The notes under the pieces were generated by a model that had not been told where the DNA came from, did not search any database, and worked only from the letters and a program-made list of their open reading frames with translations. A stretch of DNA of 64,000 nucleotides from Clostridia bacterium (lineage in GTDB: Bacteria; Bacillota; Clostridia; Oscillospirales; CAG-272): the NCBI GenBank assembly GCA_017453205.1, contig JAFTKO010000012.1, positions 1 through 64,000 on the forward strand, read 5' to 3'. A program made the translations under genes and the position numbers. How positions within the stretch are numbered: position 1 is the stretch's first letter; the number at the start of each line of letters is the position of its first letter. Below are positions 41,990-61,204 of the stretch, piece by piece.

Positions 41990-42018
41990 GAAGGAACCGC
42001 GATGTTTGCGGTTCCTTC
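41990..42018 (-). terminator. Terminator of the minus-strand gene at 42347-43498
   Basis: Perfect 11 bp stem (41990-42000 with 42008-42018); on the minus strand it is followed by TTTTATTTT. The four-hairpin repeat therefore lies in that gene's 3' untranslated region. Confidence 0.78.
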
Positions 42019-42057: not shown

Positions 42058-42225
42058 AAAGTTTTCGTCCGCCTTTTTCAAAAGGCGGTGCAGTGGAGGG
42101 CGCGGAGCCCTCCTCGCGCTCCGCAGAGCGCGAAATTCCTCATACGGCGTTCTCTTTTGTGAGCTTTTCTCTTGCGCCTCTTTCTTGCAAGAGAAAAGCG
42201 GCTAAGGTGTTTTTGCAATTTAACA
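42058..42225. repeat. Four-hairpin dispersed repeat, copy A
   Basis: A 168-base unit repeated at 60939-61106. It has four hairpins in order: H1 42069-42088 (9 bp), H2 42095-42113 (GGAGGGC/GCCCTCC), H3 42116-42131 (GCGCTC/GAGCGC), H4 42163-42199 (12 bp). The 47 bases at 42090-42136 are identical in both copies. H1 and H4 differ between copies but each keeps full pairing. It encodes no credible protein. Another hairpin (42256-42265 with 42279-42288) lies just outside. Confidence 0.85.
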
Positions 42226-42346
42226 AACTGTTATTTTTTGAATGGGGGCAGCGGTCGGAAGAAACCGCAGTGTTTGCAGTTTCTTCCGAGAATAGCTTTA
42301 ATCTGTTTGGTGAAAGTTTTTTATCCCGCCGGAGGCACGCTCCTGT

Positions 42347-56245: not shown

Positions 56246-59200
56246 ATGTTGAAAAAAATCTATCAAAAACTTGCGCTTGCGGCGGTGCTCCTGCTGACTG
56301 TGGCGGCAATGCTCGGCACGGTCATTCAAGCCGCATCCACTGACGTATATGTTGTGACCATTGATTACAAAACAAGCGAGTGCACGGTTACGGTTACGGT
56401 GGACGGCAAAGTGCTTTCCGCAAATGACGGAACTGCGGGAGAGTATCATATTCCCAAAAACCATGCCACGGTTTCTATTCAAATCATTCCCAAAATCGGC
56501 TATGAGGTTTCTGCATTGACCGATCGGGAGACCAACAAGGCGTTGGTTTCCTCCAATACCGACGGTGATACTTATGAGCCGATTTTGACCAAGGATATGA
56601 ACTATTATGTGACCGGTACTGCAAAAAACTATACCATCAAGGAAATTGCTGCTGCAGGTATGACACATACCGAGGTGTTTGGTACCATGGAGTATCAATA
56701 CGATTCCGAAGAGACGGTCAGCCTTCCGATACCGACACTGGAAGGGTACAATTTTACCGGTTGGAAGATCTATGACAATGCCGATGTTTCCTTTCAGCTC
56801 AGTACAATTACGGGCAATGCGGTCATCTTTCCCACCAGCAGTTATCCTACCGTAGGGGATGTTTTGTTTGCCGAGCCGATGTGGGTAGGAACGCCTCAGC
56901 CTGTGACGCGCCTTGACCTTGAGTACGGTTCGACGATCCCCGTCAACTACGGCAACAACGGTGTGGTATATACCACAACCTGGCAAGAGCCCAACGGTAC
57001 AACGGGTATTACCGGTCTTGACGGAAATGACACCGATGCCGATCTCAACAAAGCGGGGACTGTGAAAGCGACCTTTGATGAAGAAGGCTACAAGATGTAT
57101 GTCGGTTATGAGCCTTTTGCCAAGTATGCCTCGAACTCCGAGTATTACTCGCAGCTTGCAAAGGTAAAAACCGATGCCGATGCCAATAAGATTTATCGCT
57201 ACTATACCCCAATCACGTATATTTTGACTTACGAGGGAATCGGCGATACAAGCGCATATCCCAAAACACATGTATATAATACAGAAACATCGTTTGAAAA
57301 GCTTCAGCCCGAAAAGGTCGGTTATATTTTTGCCGGTTGGAAGGTCTATATCGTGAAAAACGATGAACGAGTTGATGTTACCTCACAAATCAACTCGGAA
57401 GTTACCGTGATTAAAAACCTTAAGCTGGAAGCCCGCGAGATGTGTCTTGCCGAGGGTAATACTGCCAACGAGATCATTCTTGAAGCTAACTGGACTCCCG
57501 AGACCTATGGCATCACCTACGATTGGGCATGCACCGACACGGTTGAGTTTGATACCGACAAATATGGTGAGATCGTTTATGACAGTGTACTTGAGATTAC
57601 AGAGTTGCCCGTGCGTGTTGGCTACAACTTTGAGGGATGGACATTAACAACCGCAGATGATAAGACCGAAACGATTTCGGTAGAGGACGGCAAAACCGTG
57701 ATCTATGGAAAATACGCGTCGGATATTACACTGACAGCTGTTTGGTCTCCCAAAAAGTTTGCCGTTACCTTGGATGGCAACGGCGCCGACAGTACCGATC
57801 ATACCGCGAGTATTGAGGCAACCTTTGACGCGGCGCTGACACTTCCCACCGATTTTAAGGCGCCCTCGCGCGTGGGTCATACTTTCCTTGGATATTCGCT
57901 TGACAAAGACGGGACAACGCTTTATATCAAAGCCGATATCAATGAGGACGGGTCTGTAACGCTGACAAGCTTGGTAGACCAATGGAAGATCGATGAGGAT
58001 ACCACGCTTTACGCGCAATGGAGCGTCAATTCCTACAAGGTAACTGTAGATATCGATACGGAAAACACCACCGTTACCATCATCGATGCCGATGAAAACG
58101 GCAGATATGATTACGGTGAGGAGATAACGATCCGTATTGAGGTGCTCAACAAATACAAGCTGGTCAAGTGGGAGGGTGCTGCGGTCGATCACACCACGAC
58201 CTACGAGTATAAGTTTACACTCGGTCCCGAAGATCGCACCTTGACGGGCGTGGTTTTGCCTGCCGAAACGGTTCCCGCGTTTGTGATCGATTATATCAAA
58301 GAAGTGATTACCACCGACACAGGGGTCATTCGTGACGGTCATTATCTGATTACTTGCGACGGTGAGCAATCACTTGATGTGGTCGTTAATAAAGGAATGA
58401 TCTCTGTCAATGGCGCCAATCCCAAATCTACGCTTTCCATACCCGAGGCCTACTTTGGAAAAAACTTGAAGATTTTGGTTTACGGTGTGGACGGTAATAC
58501 TGCGAACAGCGATGTGATCAGCCTAACCGTGGAAGCAAGGCCGGCAATGCCCGAAATGAACACCGCCACTGCCGAAATTAAGCACGTTTATCAGTATGAG
58601 GAGACGCAGATCGTAATCGAAATGACCGATCTTTCGGCATTGAGTCAATATGAATTTGCTTGCTCCGAGAATGCCGACAGCACAGGTCTTACTTGGTGGA
58701 GCGTTGCAAATGCCGACGAACGCTATTTTGTGGTTTCCGAGGACGGGAAGGTCATGTTTGTCAATCTAAAGCCCGGTGCTTCCTATTATGTTTTTGTGCG
58801 TGTCAAGGCTGTAGAGGATGATCATGCCCACGGTGTGGAGTTCCGTACAGATATTGACACCCACTCCGACAACACGTTGGAGGCAAAGAAGAACGCAATG
58901 CTCGATCTGATCACGGATACCGACGGCGAAATGGTCAAGGCATTGATCGATCAAGCCATCAAGGATGCAAACGAGCTTGTCAGTCCTTCGCCCGATTTCT
59001 ACAACAACCTTGAAGCCATCTATAACCGAGTACTTGCGGGAATTGAGTTTGCAAGAACACAGGACGCGCGTATCGCGGAATTGAAAGCATTGCAAGACAG
59101 CTTGATCGCAAGCGGGGAATTTAGCAACGACAATGTAAACCTCATCAACAATATTTGTGAGGCGGCGGTTCAGACCGTTAAGAATGCGACTGCGGTCGAA

Positions 59201-60841
59201 AATGTTCAAAGCGCATATGAGAGCGGCATGTCGCAAATGAGAGCTGTTCCCGTCACGTATTTGGTTTACGGTGACATGGAGCTGACCGCAAAAGACGGAC
59301 TCGATCAAGGAACCACGCTTTATCAGGATCGCAACAGCAACATTGCCGATTTGACCAATGCGGTGGATACCGCTATCCAAACAGGAAAATTTGCTTATGG
59401 CGGCAGTGCGATGACACAAGCACAGGTTGCCGAGGCGCTCAAGTCTCTTGACGTGATGGCGGCATATCAAATGCGTCTGACCGATGCCCAAAATGTGACC
59501 GTAACGCCCGACGGTAAGTTTGTTATTCGTTTGCTCCTGCCCAATGAGCTGCGCAATGTGAGCGGCTTGCAGGTTGCTTACTACAATGAAAAGACCGGTG
59601 AGCTTGAGGTGTTGGACACCGAAAAGGACGGCAACTGTGTGGTATTCTATGCTTCTCACATTGACGATTTTGTGATCCTCGGCGATCCCACTATGAATTT
59701 GACCGGATTTATTGTGGCGCTTGGATTGATCCTTGCTTGCCAGTTGATCGGTATCATTTTGCTGTTGGCGCGCCGTGCAAAATATGCAAAGAGCGTTCGC
59801 CGTTACAGCTTGGCATTGCCCGCACTGCTGACCATTCGCTTCCTGCCCGATAACGGCATGACGATTTTGTTTGTACTGGGCGGATTGGTCGTGTTGTTCC
59901 AAATCGTCCTAATGTATCTCTTGCTTTCCTCTGAGGTGGTCTATCACCAAAAGCATAAGCGCCGCAACGAGAACAAGCAGGCGCCCGCCGAGGATGTTCC
60001 CGCGATGGCGGAACAGCTTGAGGAGAGCTATAACGAGTCCTCTTACGGCGAAACGACTGTCGTGCTGACCGCTTTGCCCGAGGAACACGCGGAGGAAGAG
60101 GCGGATGAGGAGCTCGAGGATACAGAGGATGACACGGATAGTGACCGTGCACTTTCCGAAGAGGACGCTGTCGAGCAGACCGAAGAGGATATGGAAATGT
60201 CCGATGAGGTGTATGAAGAAGCGGTAGCCGAGGATGCTGAGGCTTATGACGATTTCATCGAGCCTGCCGCAAATCCGCGCTATTCTTTGCCCGACGAGGC
60301 ATTTGAAGGCTATGCCGTCAACGATGAGTTGACCGAGGAAGAGCTCCCCGCCGACGAAGAATATGCCGCCGACGAGACTTACACCGAGGACACCTCCGAT
60401 GAAGTCGAGACAACCGCATGGGACTATGATGACGAAGCCACAGCCGAGACCGAAGAGGGCTCCGAGTGGCAAGAGGAGTCTGCCGAATGGCAATATGACG
60501 AAAGCCCCGAAGACATCGAGGATGGTTCGACACAGGCGTTTGACACCGAGACTTACGACACCGAAGCATATGCTGAGAACGGGGAGTATATACAAACCGA
60601 GGAGGTCTATTCCGAGGACGGTGAGTACGCCGAGACCGAGGAAGTCTATGCCGAGGATGGTGCATATTCCGAAGCGGAGGACGTTGAAGCATATGCCGAA
60701 GCCGATGTCTACGACGAGAATTCCGAGTATGATGAAAATGCGGTATACGATGAAAATGCCGTATATGACGAGACCGAGGAAATTCCAGCCGACACCGACG
60801 AGGACGAAGAGCCCAAACCATATGACGGTTACGAAGAATAA
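56246..60841 (+). CDS. Giant surface protein with InlB-type repeats and acidic Tyr-rich tail
   Basis: A 1531-residue protein. A signal peptide (about 1-30) leads into Listeria-Bacteroides (Flg_new/InlB B-repeat) units of the GYxFxGW type near 150-180, 345-375, 440-475 and 530-570. A helical coiled region follows (about 870-1000). Two membrane helices lie at about 1151-1175 and 1190-1230, then a 290-residue cytoplasmic tail dominated by Glu, Asp, Tyr and Ala with short repeats (YAEDG and YDENAV types). A large extracellular repeat domain joined to a long acidic cytoplasmic tail is unusual for InlB-type proteins, which normally end in a sorting signal; no LPXTG is seen. AAGGAGG precedes the ATG. 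It forms an operon with the L15-domain protein. Confidence 0.85.
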   Translation: MLKKIYQKLALAAVLLLTVAAMLGTVIQAASTDVYVVTIDYKTSECTVTVTVDGKVLSANDGTAGEYHIPKNHATVSIQIIPKIGYEVSALTDRETNKALVSSNTDGDTYEPILTKDMNYYVTGTAKNYTIKEIAAAGMTHTEVFGTMEYQYDSEETVSLPIPTLEGYNFTGWKIYDNADVSFQLSTITGNAVIFPTSSYPTVGDVLFAEPMWVGTPQPVTRLDLEYGSTIPVNYGNNGVVYTTTWQEPNGTTGITGLDGNDTDADLNKAGTVKATFDEEGYKMYVGYEPFAKYASNSEYYSQLAKVKTDADANKIYRYYTPITYILTYEGIGDTSAYPKTHVYNTETSFEKLQPEKVGYIFAGWKVYIVKNDERVDVTSQINSEVTVIKNLKLEAREMCLAEGNTANEIILEANWTPETYGITYDWACTDTVEFDTDKYGEIVYDSVLEITELPVRVGYNFEGWTLTTADDKTETISVEDGKTVIYGKYASDITLTAVWSPKKFAVTLDGNGADSTDHTASIEATFDAALTLPTDFKAPSRVGHTFLGYSLDKDGTTLYIKADINEDGSVTLTSLVDQWKIDEDTTLYAQWSVNSYKVTVDIDTENTTVTIIDADENGRYDYGEEITIRIEVLNKYKLVKWEGAAVDHTTTYEYKFTLGPEDRTLTGVVLPAETVPAFVIDYIKEVITTDTGVIRDGHYLITCDGEQSLDVVVNKGMISVNGANPKSTLSIPEAYFGKNLKILVYGVDGNTANSDVISLTVEARPAMPEMNTATAEIKHVYQYEETQIVIEMTDLSALSQYEFACSENADSTGLTWWSVANADERYFVVSEDGKVMFVNLKPGASYYVFVRVKAVEDDHAHGVEFRTDIDTHSDNTLEAKKNAMLDLITDTDGEMVKALIDQAIKDANELVSPSPDFYNNLEAIYNRVLAGIEFARTQDARIAELKALQDSLIASGEFSNDNVNLINNICEAAVQTVKNATAVENVQSAYESGMSQMRAVPVTYLVYGDMELTAKDGLDQGTTLYQDRNSNIADLTNAVDTAIQTGKFAYGGSAMTQAQVAEALKSLDVMAAYQMRLTDAQNVTVTPDGKFVIRLLLPNELRNVSGLQVAYYNEKTGELEVLDTEKDGNCVVFYASHIDDFVILGDPTMNLTGFIVALGLILACQLIGIILLLARRAKYAKSVRRYSLALPALLTIRFLPDNGMTILFVLGGLVVLFQIVLMYLLLSSEVVYHQKHKRRNENKQAPAEDVPAMAEQLEESYNESSYGETTVVLTALPEEHAEEEADEELEDTEDDTDSDRALSEEDAVEQTEEDMEMSDEVYEEAVAEDAEAYDDFIEPAANPRYSLPDEAFEGYAVNDELTEEELPADEEYAADETYTEDTSDEVETTAWDYDDEATAETEEGSEWQEESAEWQYDESPEDIEDGSTQAFDTETYDTEAYAENGEYIQTEEVYSEDGEYAETEEVYAEDGAYSEAEDVEAYAEADVYDENSEYDENAVYDENAVYDETEEIPADTDEDEEPKPYDGYEE

Positions 60842-60858
60842 CTGTGAATATTAAATTT

Positions 60859-61173
60859 AGGGGGAAGAAAAGCTTCATGTAAGAGCTTTTCTTCCCCCTT
60901 GAGATTGTAGAAAACTAACGAGTTTCGTCAGTTTGCTGAAAGTTTTGGTCGAGCTTTTTCAAAAGCTCGCGCAGTGGAGGGCGCGGAGCCCTCCTCGCGC
61001 TCCGCAGAGCGCGAAATCACTTCTTCGGCGCTTTCTTTTTGCAAGCTTTTTCTTTGCGCCTATATGGTCAAAGAAAAAGCGACTAAAGGCTTTGTGCAAT
61101 TTGACATTTTTGTACCTTTGGTCTACACTCTGAGGGGGAAGAAAAGCTCTTACATGAAGCTTTTCTTCCCCCT
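60859..61173. repeat. Perfect 41 bp inverted repeats bounding the four-hairpin repeat
   Basis: 60859-60899 and 61133-61173 are exact reverse complements over 41 bases, and each also folds on itself (GGGGGAAGAAAAGCT with its complement). They enclose copy B of the four-hairpin repeat, giving a 315-base unit built like a miniature inverted-repeat element. They could instead be matched terminators of the converging genes. No target-site duplication was recognised. Confidence 0.85.
60939..61106. repeat. Four-hairpin dispersed repeat, copy B
   Basis: The second copy of the 168-base unit seen at 42058-42225, in the same orientation. H1 is 60950-60969 and H4 is 61045-61080. The 47 bases at 60971-61017, spanning H2 and H3, are identical to copy A. 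In H1 three base pairs differ from copy A and all three are compensated; H4 likewise has three compensated pairs. It lies between the converging surface-protein and hemolysin III genes and encodes no credible protein. Confidence 0.85.
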
Positions 61174-61204
61174 AAAAATATGATCATGTTACATAAAAAT
61201 ATTA

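What the first reader, a model, noticed from the sequence alone, without database searches (positions are those of the whole stretch)
42058..42225. 168-base four-hairpin repeat with compensating stem changes (copy A and copy B)
The unit recurs at 60939-61106 in the same orientation and length. A 47-base centre holding two hairpins is identical. In the outer hairpins H1 and H4 the stem bases differ, yet six changed pairs (three in each) are all compensated. That pattern is expected if the folded form, as RNA or as single-stranded DNA, is under selection. Copy A lies in the 3' untranslated region of a minus-strand gene and copy B between converging genes, so roles in transcript 3' ends, nucleoid binding or a miniature mobile element are possible. 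I have an unverified impression that similar units occur in other gut Clostridia; I know no name for the family.
Basis: partly seen in the sequence, partly recalled or inferred. Interest (0 to 1): 0.78.

Follow-up and report, generated by a model that had tools for sequence, protein, structure and literature searches.

The report
Terminator-hopping mini-transposon carrying a triple helix
The two repeats belong to a large family of small jumping DNA elements in gut Clostridia that land on the hairpins ending genes, copy those hairpins, and carry inside them a folded structure whose three matched strands change together as a triple helix would require.

Summary
The repeat is real and compensated, but it is part of something longer. 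The own genome holds 17 significant places; 17 of 25 same-genus genomes, own included, match. Full elements (231-326 bp) end in inverted repeats CAGAnTGTAGACnAAA and lie between two copies of one terminator stem-loop: 26 of 32 rows exceed the 99% control, 25 of 31 loci after removing a double count. A related species has the empty jag-mnmE site with one stem-loop. IS1182-type elements share ends and target, so this is a MITE family. Stems covary. New: hairpin H4 is an H-type pseudoknot whose upstream pyrimidine tract matches the H4 purine arm in parallel Hoogsteen register, perfectly in 86 of 88 parsed copies (of 98), and changes with it. That predicts a 9-11-layer triple helix. H1 and H3 show no G-U excess and orientation no sense bias, so RNA-level selection is not shown; a single-stranded DNA fold is my favoured, inferred, working form. 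The three-hairpin module is found in 55 of 295 genomes of the order. No Rfam family matches.

The parts
41990..42018 (.). copy A, left flanking stem-loop (GAAGGAACCGC..GCGGTTCCTTC), counterpart of 42257-42287
   Evidence: direct alignment score 33; copy A's flanks exceed the 99% control (27)
   Evidence: CM match 42067-42199, E 1.2e-31
42069..42088 (+). copy A hairpin H1
42095..42113 (+). copy A hairpin H2 (loop GCGGA)
   Evidence: position carried over from the alignment
42114..42133 (+). copy A hairpin H3 (loop CGCA)
42146..42149 (+). copy A pseudoknot stem S1, 5' strand GGCG (pairs with 42175-42178)
   Evidence: row L001
42150..42158 (+). copy A third strand L1 TTCTCTTTT
   Evidence: row L001
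42163..42174 (+). copy A stem S2 (H4), 5' arm
   Evidence: row L001
42188..42199 (+). copy A stem S2 (H4), 3' purine arm CAAGAGAAAAGC
   Evidence: row L001
42257..42287 (.). copy A, right flanking stem-loop (GGAAGAAAC..GTTTCTTCC)
60856..60899 (.). copy B, left copy of the target terminator stem-loop
   Evidence: 44 nt, 100% complementary to 61133-61176; row L005
60900..61132 (+). copy B, whole mobile element, ends TGAGATTGTAGA.. / ..GGTCTACACTCTG
60950..60969 (+). copy B hairpin H1
60976..60994 (+). copy B hairpin H2
   Evidence: position carried over from the alignment
60995..61014 (+). copy B hairpin H3
61027..61030 (+). copy B pseudoknot stem S1, 5' strand GGCG (pairs with 61057-61060)
   Evidence: (row L005)
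61032..61040 (+). copy B third strand L1 TTTCTTTTT
   Evidence: (row L005)
61045..61056 (+). copy B stem S2 (H4), 5' arm
   Evidence: (row L005)
61069..61080 (+). copy B stem S2 (H4), 3' purine arm CAAAGAAAAAGC
   Evidence: (row L005)
61133..61176 (.). copy B, right copy of the target terminator stem-loop (loop inverted relative to the left copy)

Best explanation
The unit is the interior of a non-autonomous mobile element (MITE). It is moved by an IS1182-type transposase that recognises the shared ends CAGAnTGTAGACnAAA. The element inserts at the foot of an intrinsic-terminator stem-loop, and repair copies the stem-loop, so it ends up between two stem-loops with a T-tract left outside. The interior holds three near-perfect hairpins and an H-type pseudoknot: S1 GGCG:CGCC, and S2 with a pyrimidine loop lying in its major groove as a 9-11-layer triple helix (T.A-T, C+.G-C). 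I commit to the fold working in single-stranded DNA, during movement or replication of the element, rather than as an RNA; this last step is inferred. Shown: ends, target, duplication, shared ends with the IS, covariation of stems and of the third strand. Inferred: that the transposase acts on this MITE, that the triple helix forms, and what it does. My confidences: MITE of IS1182 type at terminators 0.9; selected triple helix 0.75; DNA rather than RNA as its working form 0.55.
For: Flanks: 26 of 32 full-length rows have left and right flanks more alike than 99% of 2000 mispaired controls (locus L051 is counted on both strands, so 25 of 31 loci). Empty site: between jag and mnmE the own genome has the element between two stem-loops (L285), G004 has one near-identical stem-loop and no element (L290); the left neighbour is the same protein in both. 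Tandem case: three stem-loops alternating with two elements (L070). IS: IS1182-model matches in 3 of 26 genus genomes, G005, G012, G021, which are three of the four genomes with exact TIR matches among the five scanned; an IS end carries the same TIR and abuts a stem-loop (L178); 12 of 16 ends fitting the IS patterns have a stem-loop of 6 bp or more ending within 8 nt. TIR pattern: 86 matches in G021, 65 in G012, 10 in own, 4 in G005, against 0, 1, 0, 0 for the reversed pattern. Stems: 98.4% of 859 cells paired, 109 cells changed on both sides, 0 of 500 shuffles. Third strand: perfect in 86 of 88 parsed copies, 98 in all; 78 of 91 under a cruder parse against mean 30.2 and maximum 42 in 2000 shuffles, while the equal-length antiparallel model fits 16 of 91. 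S1 changes G-C to A-T in G005 (GGCA/TGCC) and in another genus (L191, L233). DNA rather than RNA: 9 G-T against 9 A-C in H1 and H3; tandem gene contexts 19 sense, 26 antisense.
Against: No intact transposase was recovered: all listed IS1182 matches are partial and below the curated cut-off, and the own-genome copy that I read is internally deleted (L165). The own genome has TIR-bearing copies but no IS1182 match. In G023 the exact TIR pattern gave 0 matches against 2 for the control. 6 of 32 rows show no flank duplication, and of 82 further cores without full first-type ends only 21 exceed the 99% control (copy A among them), some of these being tandem arrays. The empty site is another species, not another strain. 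The triple helix is a sequence inference; C+.G-C triples need protonated C. L1 can also pair antiparallel with the S2 purine arm over 7 nt in 43 of 63 copies, because the tracts are locally symmetric, so a switch between two hairpins is not excluded. 10 of 98 copies were not parsed; in the looser, L114 and L107 match poorly. In other genera, 7 of 13 chosen copies parsed and 5 were perfect. The copies are related, so cells are not independent events. The terminator comparison (16 G-T, 7 A-C) is small. Nothing tested what the fold does.
Confidence: 0.72

Rival explanations
1. The fold works as RNA: a structured 3' untranslated module or small RNA whose triple-helix pseudoknot blocks exonucleases or binds a protein, and the transposon ends are only how it spread.
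For: Loops are better conserved than stems: in the alignments the H3 loop CGCA and H2 loop GCGnA mostly stay while the stems change (the counts accept only YGCR loops in H3, so they cannot prove this). H-type pseudoknots with major-groove triples are known RNA folds (listing). Insertion leaves the element upstream of a far T-tract in several sites (read).
Against: G-U is not favoured: 9 G-T against 9 A-C in H1 and H3, while 52 one-sided terminators in the same loci have 16 G-T and 7 A-C in 548 pairs (small numbers). No sense bias in tandem gene contexts, 19 against 26 of 92. No expression data.
Confidence: 0.25
2. The hairpins have no function: perfect palindromes are kept perfect by template-switch (quasi-palindrome) correction and by spread of recent master copies.
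For: In H1 and H3 few single mismatches (9 G-T, 9 A-C, 39 other beside 2,427 Watson-Crick pairs) stand next to many double changes; the copies are a mobile family; further small palindromes lie inside the hairpins of several G021 and G012 copies.
Against: Template switching makes inverted repeats; the third strand is a parallel (mirror) match and still changes with S2. The three-hairpin layout is kept across genera.
Confidence: 0.2
3. L1 is an alternative partner of the S2 purine arm (a two-state hairpin switch) rather than a third strand.
For: Antiparallel pairing over 7 nt is possible in 43 of 63 copies.
Against: Over the full tract length the antiparallel model fits 16 of 91 copies, the parallel one 78 of 91, and the asymmetric tracts are mirrored, not repeated.
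Confidence: 0.1
4. The flanking stem-loops are part of the element, not duplicated target.
For: Stem-loops flank most full-length copies.
Against: Their sequence differs from site to site while left and right agree within a site, and an empty site keeps one.
Confidence: 0.03

Closest known systems
IS1182-family insertion sequences, IS1272 in particular (PMC5678879: abstract, section 22 and part 1 of section 29 read)
   Same: transposase family of the partner IS; target is a stem-loop
   Different: IS1272 was reported to replace the stem-loop with no target duplication; here the whole stem-loop is duplicated, which that paper draws only as a possible pathway (its Fig 13, pathway b)
MITEs and small dispersed repeats with folded interiors: BOX, RUP, SPRITE of pneumococcus (PMC3049150, passages), QMITE2 (PMC10969869, passages)
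   Same: short, intergenic, terminal inverted repeats, strong folding, presumed mobilisation by a resident IS
   Different: no triple helix or third-strand covariation in the passages seen; target here is the terminator stem-loop; sequences were not compared directly
H-type pseudoknot RNAs with major-groove triple helix (SAM-V and guanidine-III riboswitches: search listing only; telomerase RNA: recalled)
   Same: order S1, pyrimidine L1, S2 5' strand, S1', S2 3' strand, with L1 parallel to the purine strand of S2 (layout recalled)
   Different: here 9-11 consecutive pyrimidine-motif triples, in a dispersed mobile element, nucleic acid unknown
REP palindromes as IS targets (PMC1525189: abstract and outline)
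   Same: IS insertion into extragenic palindromes
   Different: target there is a repeated REP sequence; here the stem-loops differ from site to site
MALAT1/ENE triple helices (listing PMC11411715; ENEs of plant and fungal transposons recalled)
   Same: U-rich strand on an A-rich duplex, some in transposon RNA
   Different: ENE uses an internal loop and an A-tract, not an H-type pseudoknot (recalled)

Membership tests
MITE | short element without its own transposase, in many copies | tested here: met
   17 places in own genome; 32 full-length rows of 231-326 bp, too short for a transposase; longer TIR-bounded spans were inspected by ORF only
MITE | terminal inverted repeats | tested here: met
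   copies of the second type have other ends
MITE | target duplication on insertion | tested here: met
   26 of 32 rows, empty site; only 21 of 82 among cores without full first-type ends
MITE | ends shared with an autonomous IS of the host group | tested here: met
   only partial transposase genes recovered
IS1182 family (partner IS) | IS1182 transposase model | tested here: inconclusive
   3 of 26 genomes match, best E 4.7e-41, none over the curated cut-off; PF13751 over its cut-off in 2 of 26
IS1182 family (partner IS) | insertion at palindromes or stem-loops | tested here: met
   12 of 16 ends by script (15 ends in G012, 1 in G005 that may belong to another small element); two more by eye
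IS1272-type stem-loop replacement | target stem-loop removed, no duplication | tested here: not met
   stem-loop present on both sides
Rfam RNA families | match to a covariance model | tested here: not met
   window at gathering scores: one tRNA only; six loci at E up to 1: four matches, all in L016 and below their gathering scores
H-type pseudoknot with major-groove triple helix | S1/L1/S2 order with L1 Hoogsteen-matched to S2 | tested here: met
   sequence level only:
H-type pseudoknot with major-groove triple helix | triples seen by structure determination or probing | not testable with these tools
   no bench data
REP/BIME with RAYT transposase | Y1 REP-associated transposase | not tested
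   no search made
group IIC intron at terminators | intron-encoded reverse transcriptase and domain V | not tested
   no reverse-transcriptase search was made; Rfam gave no such match at gathering score in the window

The most novel reading that the evidence does not exclude
A bacterial mobile-element family keeps a long pyrimidine-motif triple helix inside an H-type pseudoknot, with all three strands coevolving, in at least three genera of one family by exact pattern and a fourth by eye (L190, L231). Its working form may be RNA (a 3'-end stabiliser spread by transposition) or folded single-stranded DNA used in transposition. My searches (open-licence papers, seen mostly as listings) showed no precedent in bacterial repeats.
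Probability: 0.55. Interest if true: 0.88.

Novelty: new variant of a known kind. Interest (0 to 1): 0.74.

Why it matters
About a hundred natural copies with some ten tract patterns display the triple code directly, so a natural triple helix can be tested with rematched third strands rather than by crystallography alone. The family also gives natural evidence for whole stem-loop duplication, a step only drawn as a possibility for IS1182-type elements in the paper I read, and shows how an element can enter the 3' ends of genes while a stem-loop and T-tract remain. It gives an origin to hairpin repeats that occur in 55 of 295 genomes sampled from one order of Clostridia.

Tried and rejected
PF01609 gave no match in the own genome; the partner was found only with IS1182-specific models in relatives. 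Spans of 2-3 kb suggested by TIR spacing in G012 and G021 turned out to be pairs of small elements (judged by ORFs and by eye). The first parses of the third strand covered 63 and 91 of 98 copies, and several of the 13 failures are pyrimidine runs taken from upstream of GGCG; one search uses a GGCG anchor and lets L1 start up to 3 nt in. In one search two copies of another genus (L191, L233) fail because the anchor was misplaced; by eye they match. The gene-context count uses simple ORF calling; its background (92 converging of 392 adjacent pairs) includes element sites. H2 was parsed poorly by script (15 G-T, 16 A-C, 108 other), so H2 is judged. Two-sided terminators gave 4 G-T and 4 A-C. Rows dropped: 44 partial hits of 174, duplicates down to 109, then 11 outside 140-190 nt, leaving 98; hits not reaching both ends; for the covariance model 41 of 42 chosen copies were aligned and 22 of these kept so that S2 stayed in register; I chose 13 of the 65 order-level copies for the third-strand check. 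Considered and set aside without a search: terminator function of the inner hairpins (no T-runs follow them, by eye), type III antitoxin RNA, coding function. Papers: PMC5678879 abstract, section 22 and part 1 of section 29; PMC10969869 and PMC3049150 passages; PMC1525189 abstract and outline; all others search listings only. That ISfinder lists long duplications for some IS1182 members is recalled, not checked.

Full report
OBSERVATION. The two copies exist as described: 168 nt each, a 47-column identical centre, compensated changes in H1 and H4. They are the only direct repeat longer than 24 nt in the window and fold better than all 200 shuffles. The window lies in an incomplete MAG of 2.29 Mb in 44 contigs, 73% complete.

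FAMILY. A search of the own genome gave 42 places at E up to 10, of which 17 have E below 1e-10 and the rest E of 0.03 or more; some of the 17 lie at contig ends and are probably two halves of one copy. Of 40 genomes (own included), 18 match: 17 of 25 of the genus and 1 of 15 others of the order. A pattern search of named genomes returned 17 stretches, all MAGs titled Clostridia bacterium or Oscillospiraceae bacterium; those whose titles name a source come from deer and sheep gut.

BOUNDARIES AND TARGET. With flanks added, the repeat turned out to be part of an element of 231-326 bp with ends CAGAnTGTAGACnAAA and their inverse. Outside these ends lie two copies of a terminator-like stem-loop that differs from site to site. 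For 32 full-length rows, 26 have left and right 60-nt flanks more alike than 99% of 2000 mispaired controls; 19 match best directly, 7 best inverted, because the loop of one copy is flipped, as in copy B. One locus (L051) is counted on both strands, so the loci are 25 of 31, 6 of them inverted. Six rows show no duplication. Among 82 further cores without full ends of this type, tested with 130-nt flanks, only 21 exceed the 99% control; copy A is one of them (33 against a threshold of 27), and some of the 21 are tandem arrays in G004 whose flanks repeat for that reason. In G005 two elements in tandem alternate with three stem-loops. The gap between jag and mnmE (gene names recalled) gives an empty site: the own genome has the element between two copies of AGGGGAAAATCyGTTGGATTTTCCCCT, G004 has a single AAAGGGGAAAATCCATGGATTTTCCCCTTT and no element; the left neighbour is the same 254-residue frame in both.

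PARTNER. The IS1182 transposase model matches 3 of 26 genus genomes, G005, G012 and G021, each time partially and under the curated cut-off; PF13751 passes its cut-off in 2 of 26. In G012 a transposase C-terminus is followed by the same TIR and a stem-loop (L178), a left IS end carries the TIR and a promoter-like stretch (L170), and 12 of 16 ends fitting the IS patterns have a stem-loop of at least 6 bp ending within 8 nt (two more have one by eye with a longer loop; one of the 16, in G005, may belong to another small element). An internally deleted copy of this IS sits in the own genome at C29:95537 (L165). The exact TIR pattern, sought in five genomes, has 86, 65, 10, 4 and 0 matches in G021, G012, own, G005 and G023 against 0, 1, 0, 0 and 2 for its reversed form. 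IS1272 of the same family targets stem-loops but is reported to replace them without duplication; the same paper sketches whole stem-loop duplication as an alternative pathway (PMC5678879). The family here behaves as that alternative.

FOLD. On 22 copies, 40 pairs: 98.4% of 859 cells form standard pairs; 19 pairs and 109 cells are changed on both sides; 0 of 500 shuffles reach these values or the covariation score; the count of further pair types is not significant (34 against 31.6, 74 of 500); sliding the partners destroys the signal. The alignment was not fitted to the structure, but the 22 copies were chosen from 41 for register of S2, and two of them are misaligned at S1. The H4 region is more than a hairpin. 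Upstream of it lie GGCG and a pyrimidine tract; GGCG can pair with CGCC in the H4 loop (93.2% of cells, one pair with a double change; GGCA with TGCC in G005 and in genus g24). This is the strand order of an H-type pseudoknot, with the pyrimidine loop L1 running parallel to the purine arm of S2. L1 matches that arm by the triple code T.A, C.G: 86 of 88 parsed copies perfect, one with one mismatch, one worse, 10 of 98 not parsed. Some ten patterns occur, among them TTTCTTTTT/AAAGAAAAA, TTCTCTTTT/AAGAGAAAA, TCTCTTTTT/AGAGAAAAA, TTTTTCTTTT/AAAAAGAAAA and TTTCTTTTTT/AAAGAAAAAA. Under a cruder parse 78 of 91 are perfect; shuffling L1 among copies gives 30.2 on average and 42 at most in 2000 trials; at the level of distinct pairs 19 of 30 are perfect against at most 14 in 5000 shuffles. 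The rival antiparallel model fits 16 of 91 over the full tract but 43 of 63 when a 7-nt overlap is enough, so an alternative short hairpin is possible beside the triple helix. Copies A and B alone already show three triples changed on all three strands.

RNA OR DNA. H1 and H3 in 98 genus copies hold 1,489 Watson-Crick, 6 G-T, 7 A-C and 17 other pairs, and in 65 order-level copies 938, 3, 2 and 22, with 14 stems too short to count and 30 distinct H3 forms. The script trims stem ends and accepts only YGCR loops in H3, alike for both kinds of mismatch. Fifty-two one-sided terminators in the same loci, scored the same way for G-T and A-C, hold 16 G-T and 7 A-C in 548 pairs; 18 two-sided ones hold 4 and 4. 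So the family does not show the G-T excess expected of RNA selection, though the numbers are small. In 92 gene contexts the element lies between converging genes 37 times, in tandem genes 19 times sense and 26 times antisense, between diverging genes 10 times; converging pairs are 92 of 392 in the background. There is no sense bias. This favours a DNA fold or palindrome correction for the plain stems. Correction by template switching cannot make the parallel match of L1, so I take the third strand as evidence of selection on a triple helix in single-stranded nucleic acid, most likely DNA.

SPREAD. The covariance model finds matches in 55 of 295 genomes of the order, 36 of 149 genera (stricter filters, best candidates only), and in 3 of 299 of the phylum sample, own included, the other two weak. 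Most distant matches that I read keep H1-H2-H3 with other 3' hairpins. The commonest exact triple-helix sequence occurs in 3 of 295 genomes, three genera, all of the own family; a fourth genus has a variant read by eye (L190, L231). Of 13 copies from other genera that I chose for the check, 7 parsed and 5 were perfect. The unit is therefore modular: a three-hairpin part spread over the order and a pseudoknot part seen so far only in one family.

KNOWN OR NEW. No Rfam family matches the window at gathering score apart from one tRNA elsewhere in it, and six further loci gave only four sub-threshold matches in one locus. Literature searches on MITEs at terminators, IS1182, triple-helix pseudoknots and repeats of gut Clostridia brought up the IS1272 work and pneumococcal BOX/RUP/SPRITE as nearest relatives; I saw nothing describing this family (open-licence papers only, listings of the top hits). 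I file it as a new variant of a known kind: a MITE by the tested features, with an unusual target duplication and an interior for which I found no precedent.

Noticed in passing
L157-L168, L171-L174 (G021, G012): Several copies carry further small palindromes inside their own hairpins (for example CGTGCTATGCACG in H1, GGCACCGGAGGTGCC between H2 and H3), so some elements grow to about 550 bp.
   Followed up: partly
L172:440-1250: One element is inserted inside a small hairpin of another copy, with that hairpin present on both sides: nested insertion that again duplicates a palindrome.
   Followed up: no
L169:560-780 and L156:2760-2940: Minimal elements of about 50-70 nt consisting almost only of the two ends, forming one hairpin.
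   Followed up: no
window 60856-60899 / 61133-61176; rows: In 6 of 25 duplicated loci the loop of one stem-loop copy is inverted relative to the other while the arms agree; local loop inversion or a feature of the insertion.
   Followed up: no
G000 contigs C29 and C37: Three pairs of matches have mirrored positions with a constant sum (about 130,993), so these two contigs seem to hold the same long stretch in opposite orientation: redundancy in the assembly.
   Followed up: no
L071, L074, L105 (G004): Tandem arrays of the core unit, up to three in a row, without the CAGACTGTAGAC ends.
   Followed up: partly
L188-L264: The three-hairpin module H1-H2-H3 is spread over many families of the order, in some copies right after a stop codon, followed by different hairpins.
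   Followed up: partly
window 56246-60841: Very long ORF (1531 aa, with a Tyr/Glu-rich acidic tail) directly upstream of copy B.
   Followed up: no
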